From Candidatus Poribacteria bacterium (lineage in GTDB: Bacteria > Poribacteria > WGA-4E > WGA-3G): a stretch of 32,884 nt of DNA. Position numbers and translations under genes: made by a program. Shown here piece after piece: positions 1 through 26,731 of this stretch (positions are counted from its first letter, which is position 1; each line of letters begins with the position of its first letter). Where the stretch lies: positions 1 through 32,884 of the forward strand of contig JAJEBZ010000137.1 of assembly GCA_022822275.1 (NCBI GenBank). Direction: 5' to 3'. The notes beneath the pieces are model-generated. The model was given only the letters and a program-made list of their open reading frames with translations, did no database searches and was not told the origin of the DNA.

Positions 1-1
1 T

Positions 2-94
2 GTCAAAAACATCTTAGGCACTTCGGTGCATAGCTGGCTTAGCAGCTATTGTGGAGCAGACGTAAGACGCATCTCTCTTAGAGAGAAACGCTAA
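2..94 (+). CDS. tnpB: C-terminal end of a TnpB-type transposon protein (cut by the window edge)
   Basis: An open frame enters from the left edge and stops at 92-94, giving about 30 residues that begin VKNIL and contain CGADVRR. TnpB (OrfB) proteins of IS200/IS605 elements end in this way: the last RuvC motif (D.NA..NIL) is followed by a short tail with a C-G-x-D-V-R sequence. The visible part would start just inside that motif. TnpB is the RNA-guided nuclease of these elements, and its guide RNA usually overlaps the 3' end of the gene. The hairpin that follows at 112-132 supports the call. Whether the full gene is intact cannot be judged from this window. Confidence 0.6.
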   Translation, partial: VKNILGTSVHSWLSSYCGADVRRISLREKR

Positions 95-111
95 CTGCTA
101 CGAAGCACAAG

Positions 112-132
112 CCCCAACCTTCAGGTTGTGGG
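112..132 (+). mobile_element. Right-end hairpin of an IS200/IS605-type element
   Basis: CCCCAACCT and AGGTTGTGGG face each other across a two-base loop, with one bulged T in the second arm. An imperfect hairpin a few tens of bases after the tnpB stop is the typical right end of IS200/IS605 elements, where TnpA binds, and it also forms part of the TnpB guide RNA. The exact cleavage site just beyond it cannot be fixed without the left end or an empty site. Confidence 0.5.
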
Positions 133-177
133 TACTATGACGATCTTAACTCCATCACAACTATTGGAGATTGAACT

Positions 178-357
178 ATGAACGATATTCTTGAAGAAGT
201 CCGAGAAGCGAAGCGACAGGTTAACAACCGTTATGATAACGATATCCACAAATACTGCATTGATGTGAGACGTAGGCAGGAAGAACTAAAGAAGCGCGGT
301 ATAAAATTTCTACGTCTCAATAGCAAAAAGGAACGAAAACCTGTCTGTAATGTCTGA
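178..357 (+). CDS. Small antitoxin-like protein, 59 aa
   Basis: The 59-residue frame starts at ATG 178, with GGAG eight bases upstream. It begins MNDILEEVREAKRQ and is rich in charged residues, so it is probably helical throughout. The pattern EVR..R....N.YDND in the first 25 residues resembles a common family of small proteins (EVR..R..IA..F.YDL) often found beside toxin genes in cyanobacteria and other bacteria; that comparison is from memory. A second member lies at 6881-7117. No toxin gene follows: the stop codon falls inside the interspersed repeat at 351. It may therefore be a solitary antitoxin or one whose partner was lost. Confidence 0.6.
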   Translation: MNDILEEVREAKRQVNNRYDNDIHKYCIDVRRRQEELKKRGIKFLRLNSKKERKPVCNV

Positions 358-736
358 ACCAGGATTACCAGGATTTACGGATTGCCAGGATAAGATACCG
401 GCATGAGAGGGTAGGGCGGAGAATGCGCGGGTGGGTGCGGAATCGCGGATTACGCAGATTACGCGGCGGTGGGTGCGGAATCGCGGATTACGCAGATTAC
501 GCGGAGCGCGCGGAGAAGATACCGGCATGAAATCATATTGCTTAGATGTTGCTTATCCTAAGTAATAAAACCTTATCCTGCGATCTTTTCCGCGTAATCC
601 GTGAAATCCGTGAAATCCGAGATTCTGTCTGAACAAGGATTACCAGGATTTACGGATTGCCAGGATAAGATACCAGCATGAAAGGGTAGGGCAAAGGTAT
701 ACACGTATACACGTATACACGTATACACGTATACAC
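351..736 (+). repeat. Left copy of a composite direct repeat flanking the Rep block
   Basis: The module starts TGTCTGAACCAGGATTACC and runs through GATAAGATACCGGCATGA. It continues into two tandem 38-bp units (431-468, 469-506) built on GGTGCGGAATCGCGGATTAC. A second head (626-690) follows, and the module ends in the GTATACAC array. The order head, AATCGCGGATTAC units, GGAGAAGATACC.GCATGA, GTATACACGTATA is repeated in the same orientation at 3539-3740. No gene is visible in 358-748; this repeat fills that stretch. Confidence 0.8.
697..736 (+). repeat. Five tandem perfect copies of the 8-bp unit GTATACAC
   Basis: Five uninterrupted copies of GTATACAC run from 697 to 736 and end 12 bp before the 3' end of the minus-strand gene at 749. 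The unit contains the palindrome GTATAC, so each copy could bind a dimeric protein. One related stretch, GTATACACGTATA, occurs at the matching place in the second composite repeat (about 3724-3736), which suggests the array grew by slippage from a single ancestral site. Confidence 0.9.
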
Positions 737-748
737 TTTGTTTTGTGT

Positions 749-1030
749 TCAGAAGCGTTGGAGGACGTTGTTGAGTTCTTTGTTGAGGGCACTGCGGACA
801 ATCTCCATTTCGGAGATGCCTTTGAGGCGCGCTGCGTCTTTGATGTCCTGCCGTTGCTGGGGCGTAAAGAGTTGTTTGCGTTCTTTGTTCTCTTCGCGTT
901 CGGCGTATTCGTCGAGGGCGCGGCGGACGATCTCAACTTGTGTGAGTCCGGTTTTTGCGTTCTGTTCTTTGATCCATCTGAGTTGGTTTTCGGTGAGGGT
1001 GAACGTTGCTGAAAGTAGTCTGCTGGGCAT
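749..1030 (-). CDS. Tandem ribbon-helix-helix DNA-binding protein, 93 aa
   Basis: The protein has two similar halves. Residues 7-45 read FTLTENQLRWIKEQ...TQVEIVRRALDEY and residues 53-88 read LFTPQQRQDIKDAA...SEMEIVRSALNKEL. Each half shows the beta strand, helix, turn, helix pattern of CopG/Arc-type ribbon-helix-helix domains with the conserved EIVR.AL segment. One chain would therefore form the pseudo-dimer that is usually made by two chains. Start ATG 1030 is preceded by AGGAG at normal spacing and by a promoter at 1081-1110. Next to a Rep_3 initiator, such a protein could be a copy-number, partition or antitoxin-type repressor; which of these is inference. Confidence 0.75.
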   Translation of the reverse strand: MPSRLLSATFTLTENQLRWIKEQNAKTGLTQVEIVRRALDEYAEREENKERKQLFTPQQRQDIKDAARLKGISEMEIVRSALNKELNNVLQRF

Positions 1031-1080
1031 GGGTTGCTCCTTTTCTGTTTTATATTTTGTTATTTATGAGTTCACTTTTA

Positions 1081-1110
1081 ATTATACTTTTTGTTATGGG
1101 TGTGTTGCAA
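1081..1110 (-). promoter_or_regulatory. Promoter for the ribbon-helix-helix gene
   Basis: Read on the minus strand, TTGCAA (1110-1105) and TATAAT (1086-1081) are separated by 18 bp, about 50 bp upstream of the start codon at 1030. The -10 box is a perfect consensus and the -35 box matches four of six positions. Confidence 0.55.
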
Positions 1111-1123
1111 GTGAAAGCAAGAT

Positions 1124-1256
1124 TTATGTGTTTTCTGCTTGGTGTCCGATTTGGAAGACGATCATGTCGAAGCTGTAGCGGAAGTTGTCATCGGTGATGC
1201 GTGGGCAGAACAGTTCAGAGGGGCGTTTGCCAAATTTGCAACATGCGAGATATAGG
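1124..1256 (-). other. Possible frameshifted C-terminal extension of the tail-chaperone-like gene
   Basis: Just past the stop of the gene at 1257, another minus-strand frame (offset +1, equivalent to -2) stays open to a TAA at 1124. It reads like real protein: NLYLACCKFGKRPSEL and later FDMIVFQIGHQ. That frame is open back to 1534, so ribosomes could switch anywhere in the overlap. In many tailed phages the tail assembly chaperone gene is read this way, giving a short G and a long G-T product; lambda uses a -1 shift and Mu a -2 shift. A sequencing error or an old frameshift mutation would look the same. Confidence 0.4.
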
Positions 1257-1796
1257 TTAGTTAGGTGTGCTTTGCCTGTCTCCGTTTGGCTCCACTTCCG
1301 GAAATCGGTCGAGAAGGGCTGCACCCTCCCCCGGTGCGTTGACGATGCTGTATGCTTGGAAGAGTGCTTCCAGCATGCTGTCTGATATGTCTTCGATTGG
1401 GTGTCCGTTGCCGTGTCCGTAGTAGGAGAAGCTGGGGTTGACGATGTGCGATGCGACCATGTTGCGTTGGAAGTCTCTGTTGACTCGTATGATTTCGTCG
1501 ATTTCTTCTTCGGTGAAGTCTGCGACTGGGACACCGTGTACTTTTTCGCTGAGTGCGTAGACCTCTGGTGTGCGTTCTAATAGCAAGGATGTTGCGAGCG
1601 GTGAGGTGTTTAGCACTTCTACTTGGAATGTTTTTCCGTCTATGTTGATTTCAACGTGTGCGGTGCGTTTGTAGTCTTTTTCTAATACGGCGGCGTTGAG
1701 TAGGGGTGCGTTGGATTTTTCGTTGTTTTGTAGCCGTCTGGTGTTTTTGTAGGTTTTGAGTTGTTGGTCTATCTGTTCTTGGATTTTTTGTTCCAT
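1257..1796 (-). CDS. Phage tail-chaperone-like protein, 179 aa
   Basis: The start chosen is ATG 1796, with GAGG eight bases upstream; an in-frame TTG at 1820 lacks such a site. The N-terminal 35 residues are charged and helical. They are followed by HVEINIDGKTFQVEVLNTSP and then an acidic helical region, DFTEEEIDEIIRVNRDFQRNMVASHIV. The C-terminal half has NP(S)FSY..., ISDSMLEALFQAYSIVNAP and LLDRFPE. This order (domain with helices, then a conserved NP.., then F plus an alternative-frame FGKRPSEL) resembles tail assembly chaperones of tailed phages. There are no other tail genes nearby, so the role is uncertain. It lies between the Rep gene and the ribbon-helix-helix gene on the same strand. 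Confidence 0.55.
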   Translation of the reverse strand: MEQKIQEQIDQQLKTYKNTRRLQNNEKSNAPLLNAAVLEKDYKRTAHVEINIDGKTFQVEVLNTSPLATSLLLERTPEVYALSEKVHGVPVADFTEEEIDEIIRVNRDFQRNMVASHIVNPSFSYYGHGNGHPIEDISDSMLEALFQAYSIVNAPGEGAALLDRFPEVEPNGDRQSTPN

Positions 1797-1853
1797 TGAG
1801 GTTACCTCTGTTTGTTTCAATTCTCTTTAAATAAGGATTTTTGCGTAGGACCC

Positions 1854-1915
1854 GGTTCGGTTAGGAAACCGAACCTACCGATAGATCGTGCCTGGGCGCA
1901 AACTGAAAGTTTGCG
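1854..1915. repeat. Two intergenic hairpins
   Basis: GGTTCGGTT (1854-1862) pairs perfectly with AACCGAACC (1867-1875) across AGGA. CGCAAACT (1897-1904) pairs with AGTTTGCG (1908-1915) across GAA. The second hairpin belongs to the AAACT.AGTTT repeat family also seen at 3815 and 11757. Neither is followed by a T tract on the plus strand, so these look like interspersed repeats rather than terminators. Confidence 0.7.
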
Positions 1916-2005
1916 GTACAAAGACTCGGGCCAAGTTCACGTTTATTGTTCATATTAGTATAACGCAAAAGGGTCGGGGAATGGTGGGGATTCTGGGGGT
2001 GGGAA

Positions 2006-2034
2006 CAATAGATATCCAATAGATATCCAATAGG
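2006..2034. repeat. Short direct repeats next to the Rep gene, iteron-like
   Basis: The 11-bp unit CAATAGATATC occurs twice head to tail (2006-2016, 2017-2027), followed by a truncated CAATAG (2028-2033), just after the 3' end of the Rep gene. Rep_3 initiators bind direct repeats (iterons) at plasmid origins, so this is a candidate origin. Two and a half copies is fewer than in typical iteron arrays. The complementary CTATTGGATAT occurs at the right end of the window (32865-32875). Confidence 0.35.
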
Positions 2035-2046
2035 ATTGGGGGGTGG

Positions 2047-3372
2047 CTATTTTTCTTCGAGACGTTCGATTTGTGTTTCGTAGTATTCTGTGATTTTTGC
2101 GATTTGGTCTGGTATGAATTCGCGTGCGACGATGGCGTTTATATCCCCGAAGTACATACCGCTGGCTTTGTATGCTTCTCGTGGCGAGTCGTAATCGGTC
2201 AGGACATCTTTTGAGAAGTCAGACATGACTTTGACAGAGGCTTTGTCGATGAGTTCTGGATTTTCTTTGATGGCTTGCTTGATGGCGGCGTGCTGTTTTT
2301 GGCGCATCTCTTTCCTGAGGGATCGGATCATCGCTATTCTATCTCTTTGACTTTTTTCATAGAGTTTCTCTTGATATTCTGGGTCTTGATAGTTATCGTT
2401 TATTGCGGAGACGATGAACCCGCCAGCGTTTCTGAGGTCTGTTTTGAAGAGTGAAAGTCCGATTTTCTCTTCAACATATTCGTCGAAGTCGTCAGTGTCG
2501 ATAGGGTGTGCGTTTTTGTCTACTGCGTCCCATTGCTGTGTGGCGATTCTGCGTGCTTCTTTGTGTGAGACACCGGCTTGGATGAGTTTGACAGCGATTG
2601 GGGGCAGTTCTTCTATATCCATGAAGAGCGATGTTTGTGTTACCTCTACTGCCTCCTCTACCGGTTCAAATGTGGGGAGTTCCTCCATTCGTGTAATTAT
2701 GAATTTGAGTTCAGTTACGCTGCGTCCTTGGTGTTTCGTTTCTACCTCTATGCGAAAGTTTGTGAGTTCGTTGATCTCCTTGATAGAAGCTTTAATGATA
2801 TCTCGGTTGAGTACTTTGTATGTCGGATATTCGTCGTTTTCGAGTCCCATCAAGTCTCTAAACTGCTCTATAGACATGAACGGGGTTTCGCCTTCGTGTC
2901 GTGCGATGTCGAAGTAGTCGTAACAGACCTCCCACAAGATGACAGCGTATCTACTGGAGAACTCGTTTTGTAGGCGTAGGTTGATTTTCGTGTAGATGCG
3001 TGGGTTGTAGAGTTTGAGGCGTAGATGTGGTGCGAATCCGTAAGTGCAGATGCCGTTTTCAATCTCTGCGGAGGCGAGGAGTGAGGCAACACCCCAGACA
3101 TCATGTCTGTCCTTTGCTAAGATATTCCATTTTACCGTGTAGTCTACGAGTGTCTCTAATGTTTCCTTGAGATGGTCATGGTTATTACTATCAAAACCGA
3201 GGCTCCGTGCAAGGTCCGACATACTGATGCGGTGGATGTCTGTTGATGGAAGTTCATCGTATGCGTTTGCGAGCAGTACGTTCCACGCTCTACGTTGTAG
3301 GTGTGTAATTCGGCTCTGTATCTGTATGGCTGGGCTGGCTTTGATGACTTCATCTATTTCATACATGTGCAT
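2047..3372 (-). CDS. rep: Rep_3 family plasmid replication initiator, 441 aa
   Basis: Residues 1-250 match the Rep_3 (RepB/RepA) initiator fold of two winged-helix domains. The first begins with VIKASPAIQIQSR.THLQRRAWNVLL and DLARSLGF; the second includes SRYAVILWEVCYDYF, SIEQFRDLMGL and YKVLNRDIIKASIKEIN. Such proteins bind iterons and open the origin of theta-replicating plasmids. Residues 250-441 are a charged, helical tail (EEAVEVTQ, QAGVSHKEARRIA, a coiled region near EKSQRDRIAMIRSLRKEMRQ) typical of larger members. ATG 3372 is preceded by AAAGGAG nine bases upstream; an upstream TTG lies in repeat sequence. A consensus promoter lies at 3447-3475. A plasmid initiator inside what looks like a chromosome suggests an integrated replicon. 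Confidence 0.9.
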   Translation of the reverse strand: MHMYEIDEVIKASPAIQIQSRITHLQRRAWNVLLANAYDELPSTDIHRISMSDLARSLGFDSNNHDHLKETLETLVDYTVKWNILAKDRHDVWGVASLLASAEIENGICTYGFAPHLRLKLYNPRIYTKINLRLQNEFSSRYAVILWEVCYDYFDIARHEGETPFMSIEQFRDLMGLENDEYPTYKVLNRDIIKASIKEINELTNFRIEVETKHQGRSVTELKFIITRMEELPTFEPVEEAVEVTQTSLFMDIEELPPIAVKLIQAGVSHKEARRIATQQWDAVDKNAHPIDTDDFDEYVEEKIGLSLFKTDLRNAGGFIVSAINDNYQDPEYQEKLYEKSQRDRIAMIRSLRKEMRQKQHAAIKQAIKENPELIDKASVKVMSDFSKDVLTDYDSPREAYKASGMYFGDINAIVAREFIPDQIAKITEYYETQIERLEEK

Positions 3373-3387
3373 TTTAGTGCTCTCCTT

Positions 3388-3437
3388 TGTCTGAACCAGG
3401 ATTTTCAACTGTCTGAACCAGGATTTACAGGATTTTT
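3388..3437 (+). repeat. Two truncated heads of the TGTCTGAACCAGG repeat in the rep leader
   Basis: Heads start at 3388 (TGTCTGAACCAGGATTTTC) and at 3410 (TGTCTGAACCAGGATTTAC). They match the first 17-28 bp of the composite repeats at 351 and 3539. They lie between the rep promoter (3447-3475) and the rep ribosome binding site, so they are transcribed in the leader of the rep mRNA. Confidence 0.8.
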
Positions 3438-3446
3438 CTCATCATC

Positions 3447-3475
3447 ATTATAACTTAAAGGTTATACGATGTCAA
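3447..3475 (-). promoter_or_regulatory. Consensus promoter for rep with an operator-like palindrome
   Basis: On the minus strand, TTGACA (3475-3470) and TATAAT (3452-3447) are both perfect and are 17 bp apart. An inverted repeat with arms TATAAC and GTTATA (3449-3466) covers the -10 box and most of the spacer. A protein bound there would block RNA polymerase, which fits autoregulation by Rep or repression by the ribbon-helix-helix protein; the binder is inferred. Confidence 0.75.
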
Positions 3476-3538
3476 GAAAAATATCACCTAATGAAGTTAG
3501 AATAATACTTTAGGTAATTCGCGGAGATACTTATTTTT

Positions 3539-3740
3539 TGTCTGAACCAGGATTTACAGGATTATCGGATTACCAGGATAAGATACCGGCATGAGAGGGT
3601 ATGGCGGAGGATGCGGGGTTGGGGACGGAATCACGGATTACGCGGCGTTGGGTACGGAATCGCGGATTACACAGATTTCACGGAGAGCGCGGAGAAGATA
3701 CCTGCATGAAAGGATGTTGCAAGTGTATACACGTATAACT
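3539..3740 (+). repeat. Right copy of the composite direct repeat flanking the Rep block
   Basis: It starts TGTCTGAACCAGGATTTAC and repeats the module order of 351-736 in the same orientation. The order is GATAAGATACCGGCATGAGA, two GGAATC(A/G)CGGATTAC units, GCGCGGAGAAGATACC and GCATGAAAGG, then GTATACACGTATA. It differs from the left copy by scattered substitutions and has only one GTATACAC site. With the left copy it brackets all three genes of the Rep block (749-3372). Confidence 0.8.
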
Positions 3741-3814
3741 CAAGTTGCTACCTATAGGATTTAGACCTGCAGACACCGTTTTTAATAGTGTACAATACAG
3801 TTTTCGCAAGTTTT

Positions 3815-3872
3815 TGTAGCACAAACTGTCAGTTTGTGTGCTAAGAGGCACAATCTAACAGATTGTGCTACA
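3815..3872. repeat. Paired-hairpin interspersed repeat
   Basis: The 58-bp unit begins TGTAGCACAA and ends TTGTGCTACA, so its ends are a perfect 10-bp inverted repeat. Inside are two smaller hairpins built on ACAAACTG/AGTTTGTG and CAATCT/AGATTG. A second unit of the same design is at 11757-11815 and a single hairpin is at 1897-1915. With the composite repeat before it, this fills the gene-free stretch 3373-3948, which also carries the rep promoter. Confidence 0.75.
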
Positions 3873-3948
3873 AAGGTGGCAACTTAGGTTAATATAATCA
3901 ATAAATCGTATTGTATCAACAGTTACACTTTTAACTATTGAGGTAACT

Positions 3949-4731
3949 ATGGATAATTTTGTTAAATTGCCAACTAACTTCTCAGATTATTTACAGATTG
4001 AAAATGCAGAACTGCGGTTTTCTGAAGCAACCAAGGTCGCATCACAGATCACCAGAGCAGGTATTCAAATCTATCCGAACATGGATCACGCGGCAATTTT
4101 CTGTGACCCGCCACACATTGTTGCTGATGGACTAAAACAACTCGGTTATGTCAATGGCTGGGATGCACGGTGTTATCCATCACCTGTTGACGGATGCGAC
4201 TATATCAATGTATCTGCTCAATTACCAAAAAAATGTCTTGCACATAATGATGGATGGTTTGACTATGTTGCAGTTGTGCATCCTGTTGACACAGCAGCAC
4301 TTGAACACATGCTCGGACAAGGGTATGGCAATCCGTTTATCCACCACTTGACATGGGGAATTGTGCCACCCAAACGAAACTCCGCAGATGATTTTGAATA
4401 CGCAAGCCGTGTTGTGCCGTTTATGGTGGAAAAACGGCATATCATTGGCAACGCAATCGGTGATGAACCTGGCACGCTTATCATCGCCTTGCCAGAAAAT
4501 GTCATGACACACCCAAAATATGAAGACGCACTATCCGAATGGATTGGCGACCTTGACGCGGAAGAATTTCAAGTTGAATCCATGCAAGGTGGTGGTTTCT
4601 TGATTCAGTTCTTTGTCTTGACTGGTGGTAGAATTGAAGTTGCATTACGTGTAGACACGACCCAGACGTTCAATCCCAAAAGCGTCCACAAGATTTCTGA
4701 AGATGAAATCAGTGCTGTACAAGGGAAATAG
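3949..4731 (+). CDS. Unrecognised protein, 260 aa
   Basis: ATG 3949 is preceded by GAGGT at normal spacing. I do not recognise the family with confidence. There is no signal peptide or membrane segment, so it is probably cytoplasmic. The pattern includes MDHAAIF.D, GLKQLGYVNGWDARC, DYVAVVHPVD and a histidine-rich NPFIHHLTWGI. Repeated H/D-strand segments of this sort occur in glyoxalase/VOC-type metal-binding folds, but this is only a weak resemblance. The C-terminal part ends in a beta-rich segment (FLIQFFVLTGGRIEVALRV). It stands alone between repeat DNA and the nuclease-like triplet. Confidence 0.75.
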   Translation: MDNFVKLPTNFSDYLQIENAELRFSEATKVASQITRAGIQIYPNMDHAAIFCDPPHIVADGLKQLGYVNGWDARCYPSPVDGCDYINVSAQLPKKCLAHNDGWFDYVAVVHPVDTAALEHMLGQGYGNPFIHHLTWGIVPPKRNSADDFEYASRVVPFMVEKRHIIGNAIGDEPGTLIIALPENVMTHPKYEDALSEWIGDLDAEEFQVESMQGGGFLIQFFVLTGGRIEVALRVDTTQTFNPKSVHKISEDEISAVQGK

Positions 4732-4777
4732 TGATATTAACATTTGTTCAGTTTCACTTGATGAAAAGGAATTAAGC

Positions 4778-4802
4778 GTGTTACACTTAACACATCTATA
4801 AT
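4778..4802 (+). promoter_or_regulatory. Possible operator and -10 box before the nuclease-like triplet
   Basis: GTGTTA (4778-4783) and TAACAC (4788-4793) form a perfect inverted repeat across CACT. A consensus TATAAT follows at 4797-4802, about 50 bp before the start at 4851. No good -35 box lies at the right distance, so an activator-dependent or weak promoter is possible. Confidence 0.35.
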
Positions 4803-4850
4803 ACACTGGAAGGTTTGGAATAATTTTACCGTAAAGGAGATACTGTTGTA

Positions 4851-5456
4851 ATGGCTTATAGCAATTTTACATTAGAAACAGTTCGGAAAAACTTTCAATT
4901 AGAGACGGTACAGTCAATAGGCATTTTTTCTGACATAGCACCTGTGAGTCCGCGCGACCATTTTATATCCGATCTTGCGAAAAAGGTATCAGTAGCCTCT
5001 GCTGTAAACACAGAAAAGGCAAGGTCAGAGTTGATTGTTGCAGATGTTCTATTTGAGCTTCTTGAGTATTTTAATCAACGTATCAGTCTCTTTTCGGGAA
5101 TTGAGTTTAACGTTGATGTGGAAGAGGGTTTGACAGGTGTCTGTGATTTTCTGATAAGCAAATCACCGGATCAACTCTCTTTAGAGGCACCCGTTATTAT
5201 TCTTGTTGAGGCAAAGAAGGAAGATTTAACAGCGGGACTTGGGCAGTGTGTCGCTGAGATGCTTGCCGCACAACGTTTTAACGCAGAAAAAGGCAACGAC
5301 ATTCCTATCATTTACGGTACTACCACCTCAGGTACAGATTGGCGATTTCTTAAATTAGAGGGGCTCAAACTGCACATTGATACCGCAGCCTACCAGATCG
5401 TACAGTATGACAAAATCCTCGGCATCCTCTCAAGCATGGTAGAGCAGAAGGCATGA
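4851..5456 (+). CDS. PD-(D/E)XK nuclease-like protein, copy 1 of 3
   Basis: This 201-residue protein has the spaced acidic motif of the restriction-endonuclease-like fold: E60 (KARSE), D99 in GVCDFLI, E120 and K122 in LVEAKKED, and Q132 in GQCVAEM. The D...ExK...Q order on predicted beta strands matches the PD-(D/E)XK catalytic core. Related stand-alone proteins starting MAYSNFTLE are common, uncharacterised, in cyanobacteria and other bacteria (from memory). The substrate is unknown. GGAG lies upstream of ATG 4851. It is the first of three tandem copies, and the 35 bp after it (5469-5503) are repeated almost exactly after copy 3. Confidence 0.8.
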   Translation: MAYSNFTLETVRKNFQLETVQSIGIFSDIAPVSPRDHFISDLAKKVSVASAVNTEKARSELIVADVLFELLEYFNQRISLFSGIEFNVDVEEGLTGVCDFLISKSPDQLSLEAPVIILVEAKKEDLTAGLGQCVAEMLAAQRFNAEKGNDIPIIYGTTTSGTDWRFLKLEGLKLHIDTAAYQIVQYDKILGILSSMVEQKA

Positions 5457-5590
5457 AGTGCTCCATGGACTGAGTATCTTAATCGGGAGTGAGTTGTTGA
5501 ACGTGTTGCGACAGATTAATCATTGCGCGGAGATAAATTAGACACATTAGGGTATAATTTGTTATATTACTTTTTAGGAGGGACAACGCA

Positions 5591-6196
5591 ATGGCTTATA
5601 GCAATTTTACTATTGAAGAAGTAATTAAAACGTTTCAGTTAGAAACGGATGAAGCAGCGGATTTCTCTTCCAAAATAGAACCGGTAGCTCCGAGTGAATA
5701 TCTCACAACAACACTGTCGCGTAACGTGCCGTTAGCCCTTGCTATAGGCACAGAAAAGGCGAAGTCAGAAATGATTGTTACCAGTGTTCTTATTGAACTC
5801 CGTGAACATTTCACGCGGCGTATTAGTTTATTTTCAGGCATTGATTTCAACGTTGATGTAGAAAACGGCTTGACCGGTGTGAGCGACTTCTTGATTAGCC
5901 AATCACCAACACAATTTTATTTAGAGGCACCTATTATCGTCCTCGTTGAGGCAAAAAAGGATGAACCGACGACTGGTTTTGGGCAGTGTGTTGCAGAAAT
6001 GATCGCCGCACAACGTTTTAACGCCGAGAGAGGGAATGAAATCCCTTGCATTTATGGAGCTGCTACTACGGGTACAATGTGGCACTTTCTCAAAATGAAA
6101 GGACAACAACTCTACATTGATAGAGCACCCTATTCAATTGGGCAATGCGACAAAATCCTCGGCATCCTATCAAGCATGGTAAAGCAACAGGTATAA
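5591..6196 (+). CDS. PD-(D/E)XK nuclease-like protein, copy 2 of 3
   Basis: It has the same 201-residue length and alignment as copy 1, starting MAYSNFTIEEV after AGGAGG. The putative catalytic residues are all kept: E60, D99 (GVSDFLI), E120 and K122 (LVEAKKDE), and Q132. It is the most divergent of the three, for instance GAATTGTMWHFLKMKGQQL where copies 1 and 3 have TTSGTDWRFLKLEG, so it probably split off first or has changed specificity. It ends 21 bp before copy 3 and is likely co-transcribed with it. Confidence 0.8.
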   Translation: MAYSNFTIEEVIKTFQLETDEAADFSSKIEPVAPSEYLTTTLSRNVPLALAIGTEKAKSEMIVTSVLIELREHFTRRISLFSGIDFNVDVENGLTGVSDFLISQSPTQFYLEAPIIVLVEAKKDEPTTGFGQCVAEMIAAQRFNAERGNEIPCIYGAATTGTMWHFLKMKGQQLYIDRAPYSIGQCDKILGILSSMVKQQV

Positions 6197-6217
6197 GATA
6201 TTCTGGGAGATTTGAAA

Positions 6218-6823
6218 ATGGCGTATAGCAATTGGACTTTAGAAACAGCGGTGGAAAAATTTCGTCTTGAAAAGTTTGAAACCTTGGGCGTATTTTCTGA
6301 AATAGCACCAGTGGATCCAAGTGCACATCTGATAACCGCTTTGGCGAAAAAAGTGTCGTTGGCCGCGTCCATAAACACAGAGAAAGCAAGATCAGAATTG
6401 ATTGTCGCTGATGTCCTTGTCGAACTACGTGAAAGGTTTGAAAACCGTATCAGTTTCTTTTCAGGTATTGATTTCAACGTTGACTCAGAAAACGGATTAA
6501 CAGGTGTGTGTGATTTTCTGGTAAGTCTCTCACCCGCACAACTTCATTTAGAAGCACCCATTATTATTCTTGTTGAAGCAAAGAAAGAAGATTTGACGGT
6601 CGGCCTTGGTCAGTGTGTCGCGGAGATGCTTGCTGCACAACGTTTTAACACCGGTAAAAGCAATGAAATTCCTCGGATTTATGGGGCTACTACCTCTGGA
6701 ACAGATTGGCGATTTCTCAAATTGGAAGGGCAAAATCTGCATATTGATATAGAACCCTACCAAATCGCGCAGTGTGACAAAATCCTCGGTATCCTCTCAA
6801 GCATGGTGGAACAAAAGGCATGA
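6218..6823 (+). CDS. PD-(D/E)XK nuclease-like protein, copy 3 of 3
   Basis: I chose ATG 6218 because GGGAG lies eight bases upstream and the product (201 aa, starting MAYSNWTLE) then matches the other two copies; an in-frame TTG at 6212 would add two residues. All putative catalytic residues are kept (GVCDFLV, LVEAKKED, GQC). It is closer to copy 1 than to copy 2 through the C-terminal half. The 35 bp following it (6824-6858) match those after copy 1 with two differences, so copies 1 and 3 come from a duplication that included downstream DNA. Confidence 0.8.
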   Translation: MAYSNWTLETAVEKFRLEKFETLGVFSEIAPVDPSAHLITALAKKVSLAASINTEKARSELIVADVLVELRERFENRISFFSGIDFNVDSENGLTGVCDFLVSLSPAQLHLEAPIIILVEAKKEDLTVGLGQCVAEMLAAQRFNTGKSNEIPRIYGATTSGTDWRFLKLEGQNLHIDIEPYQIAQCDKILGILSSMVEQKA

Positions 6824-16695: not shown

Positions 16696-16943
16696 ATACC
16701 GTTGATTTCTTGATTTCTTGATTTGCGGTTTCCTAACCAATTCAGAATACCAAACGCGTATTCTGACATACTATAAACAAAATTACCGAAATTATTTTTT
16801 AATCTTCATATGGTATTCATACCGTTGATTCTGAATAGAGTATTAGTGACACCCGACCTACGCGTCCAATTCGCGAATGTTATAAATTTTTGCCAAAAAC
16901 TGCAAACTAAATACCCTTGGAACCCATAGGATGGAGTTTCATC

Positions 16944-18638
16944 ATGCACAAATACATAGTAAATACCAGTAAGATGTTTTATCAATATACGATCAACACT
17001 ATGACCGGTTTTACTGCTGTTATAATTGGTGCTTTAAGTATCATTCTTTATTGCACCTCTGGTTGTTCTGACAATCCATATACAGGTTCAATGATGCGAC
17101 CTGAAAATGTAGATCAATATCTTAACTACTCCAAAGAAGGATATGTTTGCATTGATAATGGATATGAGACAGCATGTGTCACCCTTATCCCCAAACAAAG
17201 TATAAGCAGCTTACCAACAATTCATGTATACCTTTCAAGTATTGTTTATGTCTTTTATTACAAAGGGAAAGTCATTATGCGAGCGGAAAGAAATATGGAC
17301 ACTTCTGACCTTAGAGACCAAATTACAAATGGAGGAAATACAGGCAACGGAGAAGATAACGGGAACACCAATGGAGGAAACACAGGCAACGGAGAAGATA
17401 ACGGGAACATCAATGGAGGAAACACAGATAACGGAGAAGATAACAGAGACAATAATGGAGGAAACAATGGAAACAACGGAAACAACGAAAACACTGGAAA
17501 CAACGGAAACAATGGAAAAAGCGGAAACAACGGAAACAACGGAAATAATGGAAATAATGGCAACAATGGAAATAATGGGAACAACGAGAACAGTGAAAAT
17601 AATGGAAACAACGGAAACAACGAAAACACTGGGAGGAACACTGGAAACAACGGAAACAACGGAAATGACGGGAACAACGGCAACAACGGAAATAATGGAA
17701 ATAATGGAAACAGCGGAAACAATGGAAACAATGAGAACAATGAGAACAACGGAAATAATGGAAACAATGAGAACAACGGAAACAACGGAAACAACGGAAA
17801 CAACGGAAACAACGGAAACAACGGAAACAACGGAAACAACGGAAACAACGGAAACACTGGAAACAACGGAAACACTGGAAACAACGGAAATAATGGAAAC
17901 ACTGGAAACAATGGAAACAACGAGAACAACGGAAATAATGGGAACACTGGAAACAACGGAAACAGCGAAAATAATGGAAACAATGGGAACAGCGGAAACA
18001 ATGGTGGAGTTACTTCTCCCAACAACCCGAACCCCAGTGGTCACAATCCCCCAGACAATGTGTTGTCACACCTTGTTTATGGTCATGCTGATGACGAACC
18101 ACCTGATCCCAAAATGGTAGATGGATGGATAATTTGGATATACTACCCTCACAATTACGTAAAGGACGATAACGGCGATGGTTTGGAAGATAATCCGCGT
18201 GGATTAGGTCTTGGTCCAATCCACCCACAGACGGGGCCACGTTCAGTTGATGATCCGATTACAGAAGAAAGAGATGATTACGGGTTTACGTTCAGTGTGA
18301 CTGGTGGTGAGGTAGAAAGTTTTTCCCAAAGCAGTGGTCCCTGTACCGATGAACGTATCGGGCATTCGCCTCCCCTCGATACTGAAGACACCCGTGAGTT
18401 GGGGCAAGACAACCGTGATGACTATAACAACGTACCCTGCAACGCAGAAAAAAGTGATTATAGCGTGCAGTTCTTCGTCAAAACAAATTCGGAAAAAATA
18501 ACGATTACTATTGTCTGGAATGCTGGGATGTACTCGGGTCAGACGCAAAAATTCAACATCATGAAAGAAATTAGCATGAAAAAACGGGATGAGGAAGGCT
18601 ACGATCCTGATCATAACAACCAATACAGATGGGATTAG
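16944..18638 (+). CDS. Probable lipoprotein with a long Gly-Asn-Asn repeat, 564 aa
   Basis: ATG 16944 is preceded by GGATGGAG seven bases upstream; an in-frame TTG at 16917 has no such site. A hydrophobic segment ends TSGC (Cys41), a lipobox-like site. The N-terminal part (DNPYTGS, VCIDNGYETACVTLI, SSIVYVFYYKGKVIM, MDTSDL) and the C-terminal part (DGWIIWIYYPHNY, then SVQFFVKTNSEKITITI) match the paralogue at 15643. Between them, residues 129-355 are three 14-residue NGGNTGNGEDNGN units and about 60 G-N-N triplets with some Glu, Ser, Thr and Lys. The region is hydrophilic and probably extended, perhaps a surface stalk or adhesin spacer. The C-terminal domain has extra Asp-rich segments and two cysteines. 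Confidence 0.75.
   Translation: MHKYIVNTSKMFYQYTINTMTGFTAVIIGALSIILYCTSGCSDNPYTGSMMRPENVDQYLNYSKEGYVCIDNGYETACVTLIPKQSISSLPTIHVYLSSIVYVFYYKGKVIMRAERNMDTSDLRDQITNGGNTGNGEDNGNTNGGNTGNGEDNGNINGGNTDNGEDNRDNNGGNNGNNGNNENTGNNGNNGKSGNNGNNGNNGNNGNNGNNGNNENSENNGNNGNNENTGRNTGNNGNNGNDGNNGNNGNNGNNGNSGNNGNNENNENNGNNGNNENNGNNGNNGNNGNNGNNGNNGNNGNNGNTGNNGNTGNNGNNGNTGNNGNNENNGNNGNTGNNGNSENNGNNGNSGNNGGVTSPNNPNPSGHNPPDNVLSHLVYGHADDEPPDPKMVDGWIIWIYYPHNYVKDDNGDGLEDNPRGLGLGPIHPQTGPRSVDDPITEERDDYGFTFSVTGGEVESFSQSSGPCTDERIGHSPPLDTEDTRELGQDNRDDYNNVPCNAEKSDYSVQFFVKTNSEKITITIVWNAGMYSGQTQKFNIMKEISMKKRDEEGYDPDHNNQYRWD
17328..18008 (+). repeat. Coding minisatellite: three 42-bp units, then about sixty 9-bp units
   Basis: Three 42-bp units occupy 17328-17453, each coding a 14-residue N-G-G-N block. 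From 17454 the 9-bp unit GGAAACAAC (Gly-Asn-Asn) repeats about 60 times with third-base and single-base variants. GAA or GAG replaces GGA in several units, turning Gly to Glu. At 17631 a 12-bp unit (Gly-Arg-Asn-Thr) shifts the phase by one codon. The repeat keeps the reading frame throughout. All other frames across it are also open for hundreds of bases, purely because of the periodic composition. Confidence 0.95.
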
Positions 18639-22606: not shown

Positions 22607-22635
22607 TTGACCAAAAATCAAAAATCTGTTACACT
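22607..22635 (+). promoter_or_regulatory. Promoter of the DUF499 cassette
   Basis: TTGACC (22607-22612) and TACACT (22630-22635) are 17 bp apart, placed between the proA terminator and the DUF499 gene. The expected transcription start is near 22642. Confidence 0.65.
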
Positions 22636-22666
22636 GCTAAAAATTATGGAAGGGAGTATAAAACAC

Positions 22667-25600
22667 GTGAATGCATCCAAGAGTCCTAATCAGGACGCGC
22701 TTTATGAAGCACTTAACATCTATCGCGATGCTATGCGAGCCTTTATGTTCAAAAACATGAAGGCAGTGTCTGGAGTACTGACAGAAGAAAATATACATAA
22801 TGAAACAGATTTTGATATTAACAGTTTTCCATACCTATTCAGAAAGCATTGGCACGCTGTCTTTGAACAACGTTTTGATCCAGATCGAGATGTTCGCAGT
22901 GCTGTCGGTGTTATAACAGAGGCACGAAATAAGGTCTCACACCCTGGATCAGATGATCTTGAATCAGGATATGCTATCGGCAGACTACATGAAATTGCCG
23001 ATATGTTGGGACAAATCCATGCTCCTGAACAGAAGCGGGAAGTTGAAGCTATTCGTGACAAGTTGTTAACCAGTGCTGTTACACCGCCAGATGATAAACC
23101 GAAACTACCACGTAGGAAGACAACTGACCTAACACCTTGGCGCGATGTGATACGTCCTAACAATGATGTCATTGAAGGCACTTTCCGCAAATCTGAATTC
23201 GCAGCGGATCTCCAAGAGGTATTTGAAGGTAAGGCAAAAACCGAAGAATACGGCGAAACCGATGTCTTCTTTAATCAGACATACATTACACCCGGACTCC
23301 GCGAATTATTAATCAATACGTTAAAACGACTCGCAGGTAAAGGCGGTGATCCAGTTATTCAACTCAAAACCGGTTTTGGCGGTGGAAAAACCCATAGTCT
23401 CATTGCACTTTACCACCTTATTGATGGAGCGAATATACTGAGAGAACTTTCAATAGATGGTGAATACGCACGCCTCCGTCAAGAAATCGACGAAATTATG
23501 TCGGAAGCAGAATGGGATCCTAATACTCCGATTAACGCCAACGTCTCTGTCCTTGTTGGCACCTATCTTTCCACTACCGACTCGGATGAAACTAAACAGG
23601 GAGATCCACTCAATACACTCTGGGGCAAAATGGCAGAACAACTTGGGGGACAGGATGCCTACGATTTTATACGTGATGCCGCACTTAAAGGTATTTCTCC
23701 CGGTGGAAAGCAGTTGGACGATCTTTTTGAATATGTCGGTCCCTCTGTTATCTTAATAGATGAACTTGTGGCTTACGTGCGCAATGTAGATGCTGATGTG
23801 CAAGCACGTCTTTATACCTTCATTCAAACACTCACACACTCCATAAAAAGATCTAAGAACGTTGTGCTTGTGGCAACTTTACCTGAGGGCAAGACACAAG
23901 CAGGTGGACAAGTAGGAGTAACTGTTCTTGATGAGCTTGAGGAAATCCTAAAACGGGTTGATGCTGTCTCAATTCCATTAGAAGTTGACAACGCATTTGA
24001 GGTAGTCCGTAGACGATTGTTCGGTCCTGTCCTTGACGAAACAGAGCGTGACCAAACTTGTGAAGCGTTCAGAAAAATTTACCATAACTCGCGCAGCGAA
24101 TACCCCGAAGGTGTAAACGATCAGCAGTACTTACAACGCCTGAAAACCTGCTATCCAATCCATCCAGAGATATTTGATAGACTTTTTCAAGATTGGTCTG
24201 TCATCCCCGGATTCCAGAAGACACGTGGTGTGCTGCGTATTATGGCAACCTATATTTCACGTCTCTACCGAGAACAAGATCAATCCCTCTTGATAATGCC
24301 CGCAAACCTCCCCTTAGAAGATCCCGCACTCGCTGACGAATTTACTCGGCTGCTCGCGCAGTCCGGTGGAAATTGGGCCCCGGTGGTCCAAGAGGTAGAC
24401 AGCCACGGTTCCCGTACCGACGAAATTGACAGGAAATCCACAGTATTTGTTAACGTTGGTGGGGCTGCACGTCGGATCGCCCGTACTGTGTTTTTCGGTA
24501 GTGCGACAGGTGGTGCATTTAAAGGTATAACAACTCGTCAGATTCATCTTGGGGTTGTTGAACCGGGACAAACCGTTTCTACCTACAACGATGCACTCGG
24601 CAGAATGACTGGCAACCTATACTATCTCTATAATTTAGATGATAGATATTATTTTCACACTCAGGAGAACCTTAACAAGGTCGCTTTAGACCGTGCTGAT
24701 CAATATACCGATGAAGATGTTTACAGTGAAATTATATCACGATTAGAAAGAGCAGTTGGGCGCGTGCCGACTGTAAAAGTTTGTCCCACATCACCAAGCA
24801 TGGTAGAAGACTCTGAGGATATTCAATACGTTATTCTTCCGCCGCAGGCATCCTTAGCAAGTCGAGAAAAGGATGACGATACTGCACATCCAACAGCACT
24901 TAATATTCTCAAATATAGTGGTGATGATGAAAAGCAGCGCATCTTCAAAAATACGCTTCTCTTTATCACAGCAAAACGTGATGATATACGAGAACTCAGA
25001 AATCTTGTGAAAAATTACCTTGCATGGAATTCTATTAGGAACGGTGATGATCGACACAGTGCGCTTAGGAACCTTGAAGGAACACGATTTGATCAGACTA
25101 CGGAAAACCTTGAATCTGCTGAGGATTCGGTATCTACAACACTTTTTAAAGCGTACCGATGGGGGCTTGTGCCGACGCAAAACAATCCACAAAAAAGCGA
25201 ATACGATTTTTCTGATGTTACCACAAAAACAGATAATCTGAATATCGTACCTCGCATGCGAGATCAATTTATCGCCGATGATACTGTCATTAAAGAAATA
25301 GCACCTTCAGTATTTGCCGAAAAGTTACAGCAATATATCTGGAGCAACAGTGCCTACCAAGAGCATATTGAGATAGCCAAGCTTTGGGAACTTATGGCAC
25401 AAAACGTTTATATGCCACGATTGCGGGACCGGGGCGTCCTATCAACATGTATCAAAGAGGGAGTTTTGACAGGGACATTCGGGTTTGCCCACGCGTACAC
25501 AGATGGCGATTACGTCAACTTTCGGTTTGAAGAAAATGTCGGGGCACTCCGAATAGAGAAAGGCACAACTGCAATCCTGATAAACCCTGAATTGGCAAGA

Positions 25601-25969
25601 ATTATCAAGGAAGAAAAAGAAAAGCAGGAAGAAGAACATCAAAAAAAGGAAAAAGGAAAAGATGATCCAACCGAGAAAGATTCAAAGGGGGAAACTACAG
25701 AAGAAGAAACCGAAAAAGGTAAAGAACCTTCACCACCTACTGGACCTAAACGTGTTATTATAACCAAAACCTTAGAGTTGGAATTGCCTTTTGCCGACGA
25801 GATTGGCGTAATCCAAGACGAAATTGTACGCACGCTACAAGCCGATGGTGGAGGGGTAAAGATCGAAATCGTTGTTACCGCTGATAAATCCGAAGGGTTT
25901 TCGGAAAACACTACTCGTTCTGTCCGATTGAACAGTGAACATATTGATGCAGAATTCAAAAGTGATTAG
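22667..25969 (+). CDS. HEPN (Swt1-like)-DUF499 ATPase, predicted defence protein, 1100 aa
   Basis: I prefer GTG 22667, ten bases after AAGGGAG. A TTG at 22607 is inside the -35 box, and ATG 22646 would leave almost no leader. Residues 1-125 resemble the Swt1-type HEPN domain, with R87NKVSH92, an R-x4-H motif typical of HEPN RNases. DUF499 follows: GTFRKSEFAADLQEV, Walker A TGFGGGKTH (K240), Walker B ILIDEL (D364-E365). The C-terminus has a highly charged stretch (EEKEKQEEEHQKKEKGK) then a small beta-rich domain. DUF499 ATPases are found with DUF1156 methyltransferases in predicted anti-phage loci. Both the ATPase motifs and the HEPN motif look intact. Confidence 0.88.
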   Translation: MNASKSPNQDALYEALNIYRDAMRAFMFKNMKAVSGVLTEENIHNETDFDINSFPYLFRKHWHAVFEQRFDPDRDVRSAVGVITEARNKVSHPGSDDLESGYAIGRLHEIADMLGQIHAPEQKREVEAIRDKLLTSAVTPPDDKPKLPRRKTTDLTPWRDVIRPNNDVIEGTFRKSEFAADLQEVFEGKAKTEEYGETDVFFNQTYITPGLRELLINTLKRLAGKGGDPVIQLKTGFGGGKTHSLIALYHLIDGANILRELSIDGEYARLRQEIDEIMSEAEWDPNTPINANVSVLVGTYLSTTDSDETKQGDPLNTLWGKMAEQLGGQDAYDFIRDAALKGISPGGKQLDDLFEYVGPSVILIDELVAYVRNVDADVQARLYTFIQTLTHSIKRSKNVVLVATLPEGKTQAGGQVGVTVLDELEEILKRVDAVSIPLEVDNAFEVVRRRLFGPVLDETERDQTCEAFRKIYHNSRSEYPEGVNDQQYLQRLKTCYPIHPEIFDRLFQDWSVIPGFQKTRGVLRIMATYISRLYREQDQSLLIMPANLPLEDPALADEFTRLLAQSGGNWAPVVQEVDSHGSRTDEIDRKSTVFVNVGGAARRIARTVFFGSATGGAFKGITTRQIHLGVVEPGQTVSTYNDALGRMTGNLYYLYNLDDRYYFHTQENLNKVALDRADQYTDEDVYSEIISRLERAVGRVPTVKVCPTSPSMVEDSEDIQYVILPPQASLASREKDDDTAHPTALNILKYSGDDEKQRIFKNTLLFITAKRDDIRELRNLVKNYLAWNSIRNGDDRHSALRNLEGTRFDQTTENLESAEDSVSTTLFKAYRWGLVPTQNNPQKSEYDFSDVTTKTDNLNIVPRMRDQFIADDTVIKEIAPSVFAEKLQQYIWSNSAYQEHIEIAKLWELMAQNVYMPRLRDRGVLSTCIKEGVLTGTFGFAHAYTDGDYVNFRFEENVGALRIEKGTTAILINPELARIIKEEKEKQEEEHQKKEKGKDDPTEKDSKGETTEEETEKGKEPSPPTGPKRVIITKTLELELPFADEIGVIQDEIVRTLQADGGGVKIEIVVTADKSEGFSENTTRSVRLNSEHIDAEFKSD

Positions 25970-25975
25970 AATGCC

Positions 25976-26004
25976 TTGACTTTAGCAACACTCTGTAATA
26001 CAAT
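25976..26004 (+). promoter_or_regulatory. Internal promoter for the toxin-antitoxin pair
   Basis: TTGACT (25976-25981) and TACAAT (25999-26004) are 17 bp apart, starting six bases after the DUF499 stop. The pair at 26056-26708, and perhaps the genes after it, can be transcribed independently of the DUF499 gene. Confidence 0.65.
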
Positions 26005-26055
26005 ATTTCTATGGCACAAAACTACGATAATATGACAAAAAAGGAGGGAACTGGG

Positions 26056-26313
26056 ATGGAGGTAATCATCAAATTGACAACCAAACAAATTATTGATTCT
26101 ATCCAACAGATGCCAGGGGAAGATAAGTTAGCTGTTGTCCTTGCACTCGCGAAGGAATCGATGCCGCACCGTGCGGAACGGATGCAATATCTTGAATCAA
26201 AGGTTCGAGATGTTTGCGCTAAACGCGGATTGAATTGGGATACTATGACAGACGAAGATCGCCAGGATTTCATCAATGATATTGTCCATGAGGACCGTGA
26301 ATGCGCCCTATAG
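26056..26313 (+). CDS. Probable antitoxin paired with the PIN-domain toxin, 85 aa
   Basis: ATG 26056 follows AAGGAGG at ideal spacing, which decides this start over an in-frame ATG at 26011. The protein starts MEVIIKLTTKQIIDSIQQMP and continues with helices (DKLAVVLALAKE, AERMQYLESKVRDVC). The beta strand followed by two helices at the start is usual for small antitoxins upstream of PIN toxins. Its last 13 bases overlap the PIN gene, so the two are translationally coupled. No DNA-binding domain is clearly visible, so autoregulation, if any, would need another motif. Confidence 0.75.
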   Translation: MEVIIKLTTKQIIDSIQQMPGEDKLAVVLALAKESMPHRAERMQYLESKVRDVCAKRGLNWDTMTDEDRQDFINDIVHEDRECAL

Positions 26314-26708
26314 TGGTTTACGATACAAATGTGCTAATATCTGGTATGATTTGGGGAGGTGTTCCTTATGATTGCATAGCACTTGCCCAGCGAAATAAAG
26401 TGGAAGCGGTAACCTGTTCTGAAATACTTAACGAGCTCTCGGAGAAATTAACTACTAAGTTTAATGCATCCCCTTCCCAGGCCGCTGACATAGTTGCTGA
26501 ACTCCTTAGTTTTCACCGATCAGTCAGAATTACGAATCAACTTAAGAGTGTTACTGCGGATCCCGATGACGATAAGGTGATAGAATGTGCCGTTGTGGGA
26601 GGTGCCACCCACGTTGTTACTGGCGACAAGAAGCATCTGTTACCACTTGGAAGTTATAAAGGTATTCCTATTGTGAAAGCCGCAGATCTTCTCATACAGT
26701 TCCAATAA
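26301..26708 (+). CDS. PIN-domain toxin (COG1569 / TIGR00305 type), 135 aa
   Basis: PIN domains are metal-dependent RNases, and in toxin-antitoxin pairs they stop growth by cutting tRNA or other RNA. The acidic residues are in place: D8 in VVYDTNVLISG, E41 and E45 in CSEILNEL, D87-D91 in ADPDDDKVIECA, and D109 in TGDKKHLL. The sequence type (YDTNVLIS..W.G.P, GDKKHLLPLG.Y.GI.IV) fits the single-domain family TIGR00305, normally a toxin. The start ATG 26301 lies inside the antitoxin gene in another frame. It sits between the DUF499 and DUF1156 genes, so it interrupts what is otherwise a two-gene core. Confidence 0.9.
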   Translation: MRPIVVYDTNVLISGMIWGGVPYDCIALAQRNKVEAVTCSEILNELSEKLTTKFNASPSQAADIVAELLSFHRSVRITNQLKSVTADPDDDKVIECAVVGGATHVVTGDKKHLLPLGSYKGIPIVKAADLLIQFQ

Positions 26709-26731
26709 AAATTAATTGTTGACAAAGTACT

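What the first reader, a model, noticed from the sequence alone, without database searches (positions are those of the whole stretch)
351..3740. Rep_3 initiator block bracketed by composite direct repeats: a possible integrated replicon
Two copies of one composite repeat (351-736 and 3539-3740) lie in the same orientation on either side of three minus-strand genes including a plasmid initiator. Recombination between them would release a circle of about 3.2 kb with a Rep gene and candidate iterons. The repeats may be the cause of integration or a later, independent invasion.
Basis: partly seen in the sequence, partly recalled or inferred. Interest (0 to 1): 0.65.

Follow-up and report, generated by a model that had tools for sequence, protein, structure and literature searches.

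The report
Stranded phage-plasmid remnant beside repeats
In a draft genome of a sponge-type bacterium (Candidatus Poribacteria), the 'plasmid' block is most likely a stranded scrap of a virus that lived as a plasmid: its replication gene survives but its origin is gone, and the repeats around it are ordinary genome-wide repeats that do not mark a releasable circle.

Summary
The block is real: RHH gene, frameshifted gene, Rep_3 initiator, with similar direct repeats either side (84% over 191 bp). The interpretation changes in four ways. (1) The repeats belong to a dispersed family (92 matches from 40 of 266 scored candidates). (2) The 'iterons' are units of that family. Every close Poribacteria Rep homologue with readable upstream DNA has a 22-bp iteron array; the window has none, nor was an array found elsewhere in the genome. 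The window Rep has the longest tip branch among the ingroup Reps. (3) The other two genes are phage-derived. The 187-aa ORF has a conserved +1/-2 shift (CGA-TTT-YC), like the gene before the tape-measure gene in a Poribacteria tailed phage (a tail assembly chaperone). The RHH gene has homologues near terminase in five virus contigs. A relative carries phage structural genes, this chaperone, RHH and a Rep_3 with iterons on overlapping contigs: a phage-plasmid. (4) The chromosomal join (3733/3734) falls at a ~155-bp MITE; the sister genome and the MITE target duplication point to larA, on contig C262, as the native neighbour. So the integration itself is unproven (strain variant or chimera). Verdict: remnant of a Rep_3 phage-plasmid, origin lost, no evidence of excision.

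The parts
1..141 (.). Dispersed repeat at the contig start, identical to the first 141 bases of contig C309; both contigs break here. The end hairpin recalls IS200/IS605 ends (from memory only).
351..736 (+). Left composite repeat: about two units of a dispersed family, ending in a (TATACACG)n array
749..1030 (-). Ribbon-helix-helix protein, 93 aa. Homologues: 69% on the Rep contig of G011, 56% about 1 kb from terminase on G034:C22, 47-61% in five IMG/VR phage contigs carrying the same terminase lineage
1124..1820 (-). Tail-assembly-chaperone-like gene: 187-aa frame (1257-1820) plus a +1/-2 frame continuation to 1124; shift site CGA-TTT-CC near 1309. A 343-aa homologue with the same shift site precedes the 1979-aa tape-measure-like gene on G034:C16
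2047..3372 (-). Rep_3 initiator, about 441 aa, intact; longest terminal branch of the ingroup Reps in its tree and most sole departures from invariant columns (7), including R215H and A197S in WH2
3379..3385 (-). Likely Shine-Dalgarno sequence of Rep (AGGAGAG); dispersed repeat units begin just upstream of it at 3388, where relatives have promoter and iterons
   Evidence: (direct reading)
3388..3434 (+).
3539..3733 (+). Right composite repeat; its TATACACG array stops at 3733 at the join
3738..3889 (.). MITE, about 150-157 bp, TIRs ACTCAAGTTGC / GCAACTTAGGT, at least 40 copies in the genome, AT-rich 7-8 bp target duplication. Right flank TAATATA is repeated on the larA side in contig C262, not on the Rep side (ACGTATA)
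3949..4731 (+). Conserved chromosomal gene (orthologues in 49 of 60 relatives); in sister G007 it follows a larA-like gene after a spacer of about 60 bp

Best explanation
The block is a remnant of a Rep_3-type phage-plasmid of Poribacteria. In the ancestral element, Rep would bind a 22-bp iteron array just upstream of its own gene to start plasmid replication, while a tailed-phage structural module (with a frameshifted tail assembly chaperone before the tape measure gene) would make particles. In the window only Rep, the chaperone and the RHH gene are left. Dispersed host repeats now stand where promoter and iterons should be, from about 15 bp before the start codon, so the block should not replicate by itself even if a circle formed. 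Shown by sequence: gene identities, iteron loss, the shared frameshift site, linkage of these genes in a relative, dispersed nature of the repeats, ambiguity at the MITE. Inferred: iterons as the origin, the chaperone role, loss of replication, and the order of events. Whether the block lies in the main chromosome, in a strain variant, or was joined to gene 3949-4731 by the assembler is not settled.
For: Rep3_N/Rep3_C. Poribacteria homologues at 47-65% with 2-13 iterons wherever at least 150 bp upstream are held; none in window 1-4000 and no array found in the own genome with a one-mismatch core pattern. Window Rep nests among iteron-bearing relatives (97/96) with an end branch of 0.5 against 0.03-0.17 for its sisters. 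Chaperone homologue E 1e-13 on G034:C16 directly before the tape-measure-like gene, on a contig with terminase, portal, major head protein, endolysin and a Rep_3 with 6 iteron matches. Same CGATTTYC shift in the window, G034 and two IMG/VR phage contigs. RHH homologue near terminase in five virus contigs and on G034:C22, and on the Rep contig of G011. A chaperone relic about 8 kb from Rep in G001. Dispersed repeats. MITE and target-duplication analysis.
Against: Rep, chaperone and RHH frames are all open, so decay is not advanced. Gene order (Rep-chaperone-RHH, one strand) differs from G034. None of six IMG/VR contigs of this phage lineage holds a detectable Rep (all fragments), so Rep and phage genes may have been put together separately. 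No circular form was found, and G034's element is not shown to be extrachromosomal. Pfam and PHROGs give no chaperone hit; that role rests on position, homology and the frameshift. Iterons diverged beyond the matrix, or lying beyond the contig edge, cannot be excluded.
Confidence: 0.7

Rival explanations
1. Mis-joined live replicon: the block sits on a free plasmid or phage-plasmid, and the assembler joined it to the chromosome through the MITE; its iterons lie on unassembled or unbinned sequence.
For: The join is at a high-copy MITE. larA (contig C262) is the native left neighbour by synteny and by the perfect TAATATA duplication; C28 and C262 share 99-109 exact bases with this MITE copy. The left contig edge is also a repeat.
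Against: No iteron array found anywhere in a 96% complete genome. The repeats that replace the origin start about 15 bp from the Rep start codon, well inside the contig, where relatives have iterons 20-750 bp upstream. Long Rep branch.
Confidence: 0.17
2. One reading: an integrated replicon that excises and integrates by recombination between the composite direct repeats.
For: Direct orientation; the two copies are each other's best match.
Against: 84% identity over 191 bp is ordinary for this dispersed family. No iterons, no recombinase in the block, no circular junction. The repeats are not found as brackets of other Rep loci.
Confidence: 0.04
3. Rep kept for a new chromosomal role (domesticated DNA-binding protein).
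For: Intact frame and Shine-Dalgarno sequence; iteron-less Rep homologues sit in shared gene surroundings in G056/G057.
Against: It is the only Rep3 copy in its genome and is absent from most relatives; no conserved surroundings; fast branch.
Confidence: 0.09

Closest known systems
Phage-plasmids (P1-like and others; PMC10879196)
   Same: Phage structural genes and a plasmid initiator in one element (seen on G034 contigs); gene loss yields plasmids or integrated remnants
   Different: Poribacteria host, Rep_3 with 22-bp iterons; the window keeps only three genes and no origin
Rep_3 / RepB-family iteron plasmids (Rhodobacteraceae, Acinetobacter)
   Same: WH1 and WH2 initiator domains; 28-35% identity among the best plasmid matches; relatives carry iterons and some have ParA plus RHH genes
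   Different: No iterons and no partition genes in the window
Lambda gpG/gpGT-type tail assembly chaperones
   Same: Gene next to the tape measure gene in G034, with a frameshift near its 3' end
   Different: Shift is +1/-2 at CGA-TTT-YC, where lambda uses -1 (PMC5009743); in the window no tape measure gene follows

Membership tests
Rep_3 initiator | Rep3_N (WH1) and Rep3_C (WH2) domains | tested here: met
   62 bits each, above cut-offs
Rep_3 replicon | Iteron array next to rep | tested here: not met
   No hit in 1-4000, no array found in own genome; present in all close Poribacteria relatives with readable upstream DNA
Rep_3 replicon | Autonomous circular form | tested here: inconclusive
   No end overlap in nine relatives' contigs; no reads available for the window genome
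Phage-plasmid | Phage structural genes and plasmid initiator in one element | tested here: inconclusive
   Met on G034:C16; in the window only one tail-type gene, an RHH gene and Rep remain
Phage-plasmid | Extrachromosomal maintenance and particle formation | not testable with these tools
   Needs reads or experiment
Frameshifted tail assembly chaperone | Gene directly before the tape measure gene with a conserved frameshift near its 3' end | tested here: inconclusive
   Shift site and homology met; position met in G034 and similar in L171/L173, not in the window, which has no tape measure gene
Composite-repeat-bounded excisable element | Repeats specific to the element | tested here: not met
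   92 matches genome-wide from 40 scored candidates

The most novel reading that the evidence does not exclude
Poribacteria carry an undescribed lineage of Rep_3 phage-plasmids with 22-bp iterons and a +1/-2 programmed frameshift in the tail assembly chaperone. The window preserves a stage in its decay in which the initiator outlives its origin, which was displaced by dispersed host repeats.
Probability: 0.4. Interest if true: 0.55.

Novelty: new member of a known kind. Interest (0 to 1): 0.4.

Why it matters
It turns a claim of an excisable mini-plasmid into a concrete, checkable case of phage-plasmid decay, and points to a phage-plasmid lineage in an uncultured, sponge-associated phylum for which a full-text search found no paper naming both. 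It also supplies a 22-bp iteron motif and a conserved frameshift site that can be used to find intact members, and it warns that MITEs in these genomes create ambiguous contig joins.

Tried and rejected
Single-protein scan of genome contigs with Rep found nothing; the alignment scan worked. Rfam on 1-5000 gave only sub-threshold chance hits. Circularity by end overlap: none. Empty-site comparison upstream of 3949-4731 was complicated by an older rearrangement shared with G007; the larA linkage solved it. A MITE insertion beside Rep as the cause of the join was considered and set aside: its Rep-side flank ACGTATA lacks the family's T-A-rich target form and does not match the right flank. PHROGs and Pfam gave no chaperone name. 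PDB profile search with the Rep alignment: no hit. Chaperone scans of IMG/VR with the window and G034 proteins: none. No TnpB was found beside the C149 copy of the 1-141 repeat, so the IS200/IS605 guess is unproven.

Full report
What was checked. The window is the whole of contig C310 (32,884 bp) of a 4.53 Mb, 320-contig draft genome; named matches to its Rep family are Candidatus Poribacteria. The Rep gene carries both Rep_3 domains and is the only Rep3 match in its genome.

The repeats. Searching the own genome with 351-736 gives 92 matches from only 40 scored of 266 candidate places. The copies on either side of the block are each other's best match at 84%, but among other fetched copies nearest-neighbour identities run from 78 to 99%, so this needs no special link to the block. 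A further unit lies near 32.7 kb of the same window. The three copies upstream of Rep that look like iterons are units of this family; the first starts at 3388, just upstream of the Rep Shine-Dalgarno sequence.

The missing origin. Relatives were found in 18 of 60 genomes and in 41 named loci. In Poribacteria relatives at 47% identity or more with at least 150 bp of upstream DNA there are always iterons, mostly spaced by 22 bp (consensus GTTAAAGGTGAAGGTTTATGGG), 2 to 13 above the cut-off. The window has none in 4 kb on either strand; its best score is below the mean best of shuffled sequence. A one-mismatch search for the iteron core in the own genome gives single scattered hits, fewer than its reversed control. 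The window Rep falls inside a supported clade with iteron-bearing Reps (97/96) and has a longer tip branch than any other ingroup Rep (0.5); it also has the most sole departures from otherwise invariant columns, two of them in WH2. Together these suggest an initiator released from its origin, though its frame is intact.

The other two genes are phage-derived. The 187-aa ORF has only one clear partner among 60 relatives, G034. There a 343-aa homologue lies directly before a 1979-aa tape-measure-like gene, on a contig with terminase, portal, maturation protease, major head protein and endolysin (PHROGs). In both, the reading frame changes near the 3' end at CGA-TTT-YC by +1 (or -2), and the continuation is homologous. 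Genes in the same kind of position on two IMG/VR phage contigs, L171 and L173, shift at the same site. This fits a tail assembly chaperone with programmed frameshift; in lambda and many phages that shift is -1 (PMC5009743). The RHH gene has homologues 1-2.6 kb from terminase in five virus contigs and on G034:C22, and 69% on the small Rep contig of G011.

A phage-plasmid in a relative. G034:C16 joins the structural module to a Rep_3 gene with iterons about 0.7 kb beyond the tail-fibre-like gene; C22 shares 31.8 kb of it exactly and adds the RHH gene. In G001 a truncated chaperone lies about 8 kb from Rep, ParA and tyrosine recombinase genes on a contig with chromosomal-looking genes. Phage-plasmids are known to turn into plasmids or integrated remnants by gene loss (PMC10879196). 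Limits: six IMG/VR contigs with the same terminase lineage show no Rep (all fragments), and circularity was not shown.

The chromosomal join. Gene 3949-4731 is a conserved chromosomal gene. In sister G007 it follows a larA-like gene after about 60 bp. In the window genome that larA gene ends contig C262, whose last 96 bases equal window 3734-3829. Those bases begin a MITE with at least 40 copies. MITE copies have AT-rich 7-8 bp target duplications; the window's right flank TAATATA is matched by the larA side of C262 and not by the Rep side (ACGTATA). A third contig, C28, shares 109 exact bases of this MITE copy. So the native order is larA-MITE-3949 gene, and the Rep block's link to the chromosome is either a variant in part of the population, joined at a TATA microhomology, or an assembly join. 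The assembly alone cannot tell.

Conclusion. A remnant of a Rep_3 phage-plasmid with its origin lost, next to ordinary dispersed repeats. Confidence is about 0.7 for what the block is, and low for where it lies.

Noticed in passing
window 3738-3889: A MITE family of at least 40 copies (251 first-look candidates) with AT-rich 7-8 bp target duplications; several contigs end inside copies.
   Followed up: yes
G010 contig 1, six places: Six terminase-large copies, each in a 640-660 aa frame with about 170 extra residues between query residues 211 and 232; possibly an intein, and repeated related prophages in one closed genome.
   Followed up: no
G000 C191:5-370 and C253:2-253: Terminase fragments at contig starts: the window genome holds other members of this phage lineage broken by assembly.
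   Followed up: no
window 22607-29530: HmaC-like ATPase and HmaB-like methylase (PADLOC) flank small genes including a PIN protein; the helicase of the Hma defence system was not looked for.
   Followed up: partly
window 4851-6823: Three tandem paralogues of about 200 aa; the first matches a PD-DExK model.
   Followed up: no
window 16917-18638: Secreted-looking protein with a long Asn/Gly-rich (NGN-type) low-complexity stretch.
   Followed up: no
window 1-141 and C309:1-141: Identical 141-base contig starts, hinting at an assembler word size of 141 and a repeat at the contig edge.
   Followed up: partly
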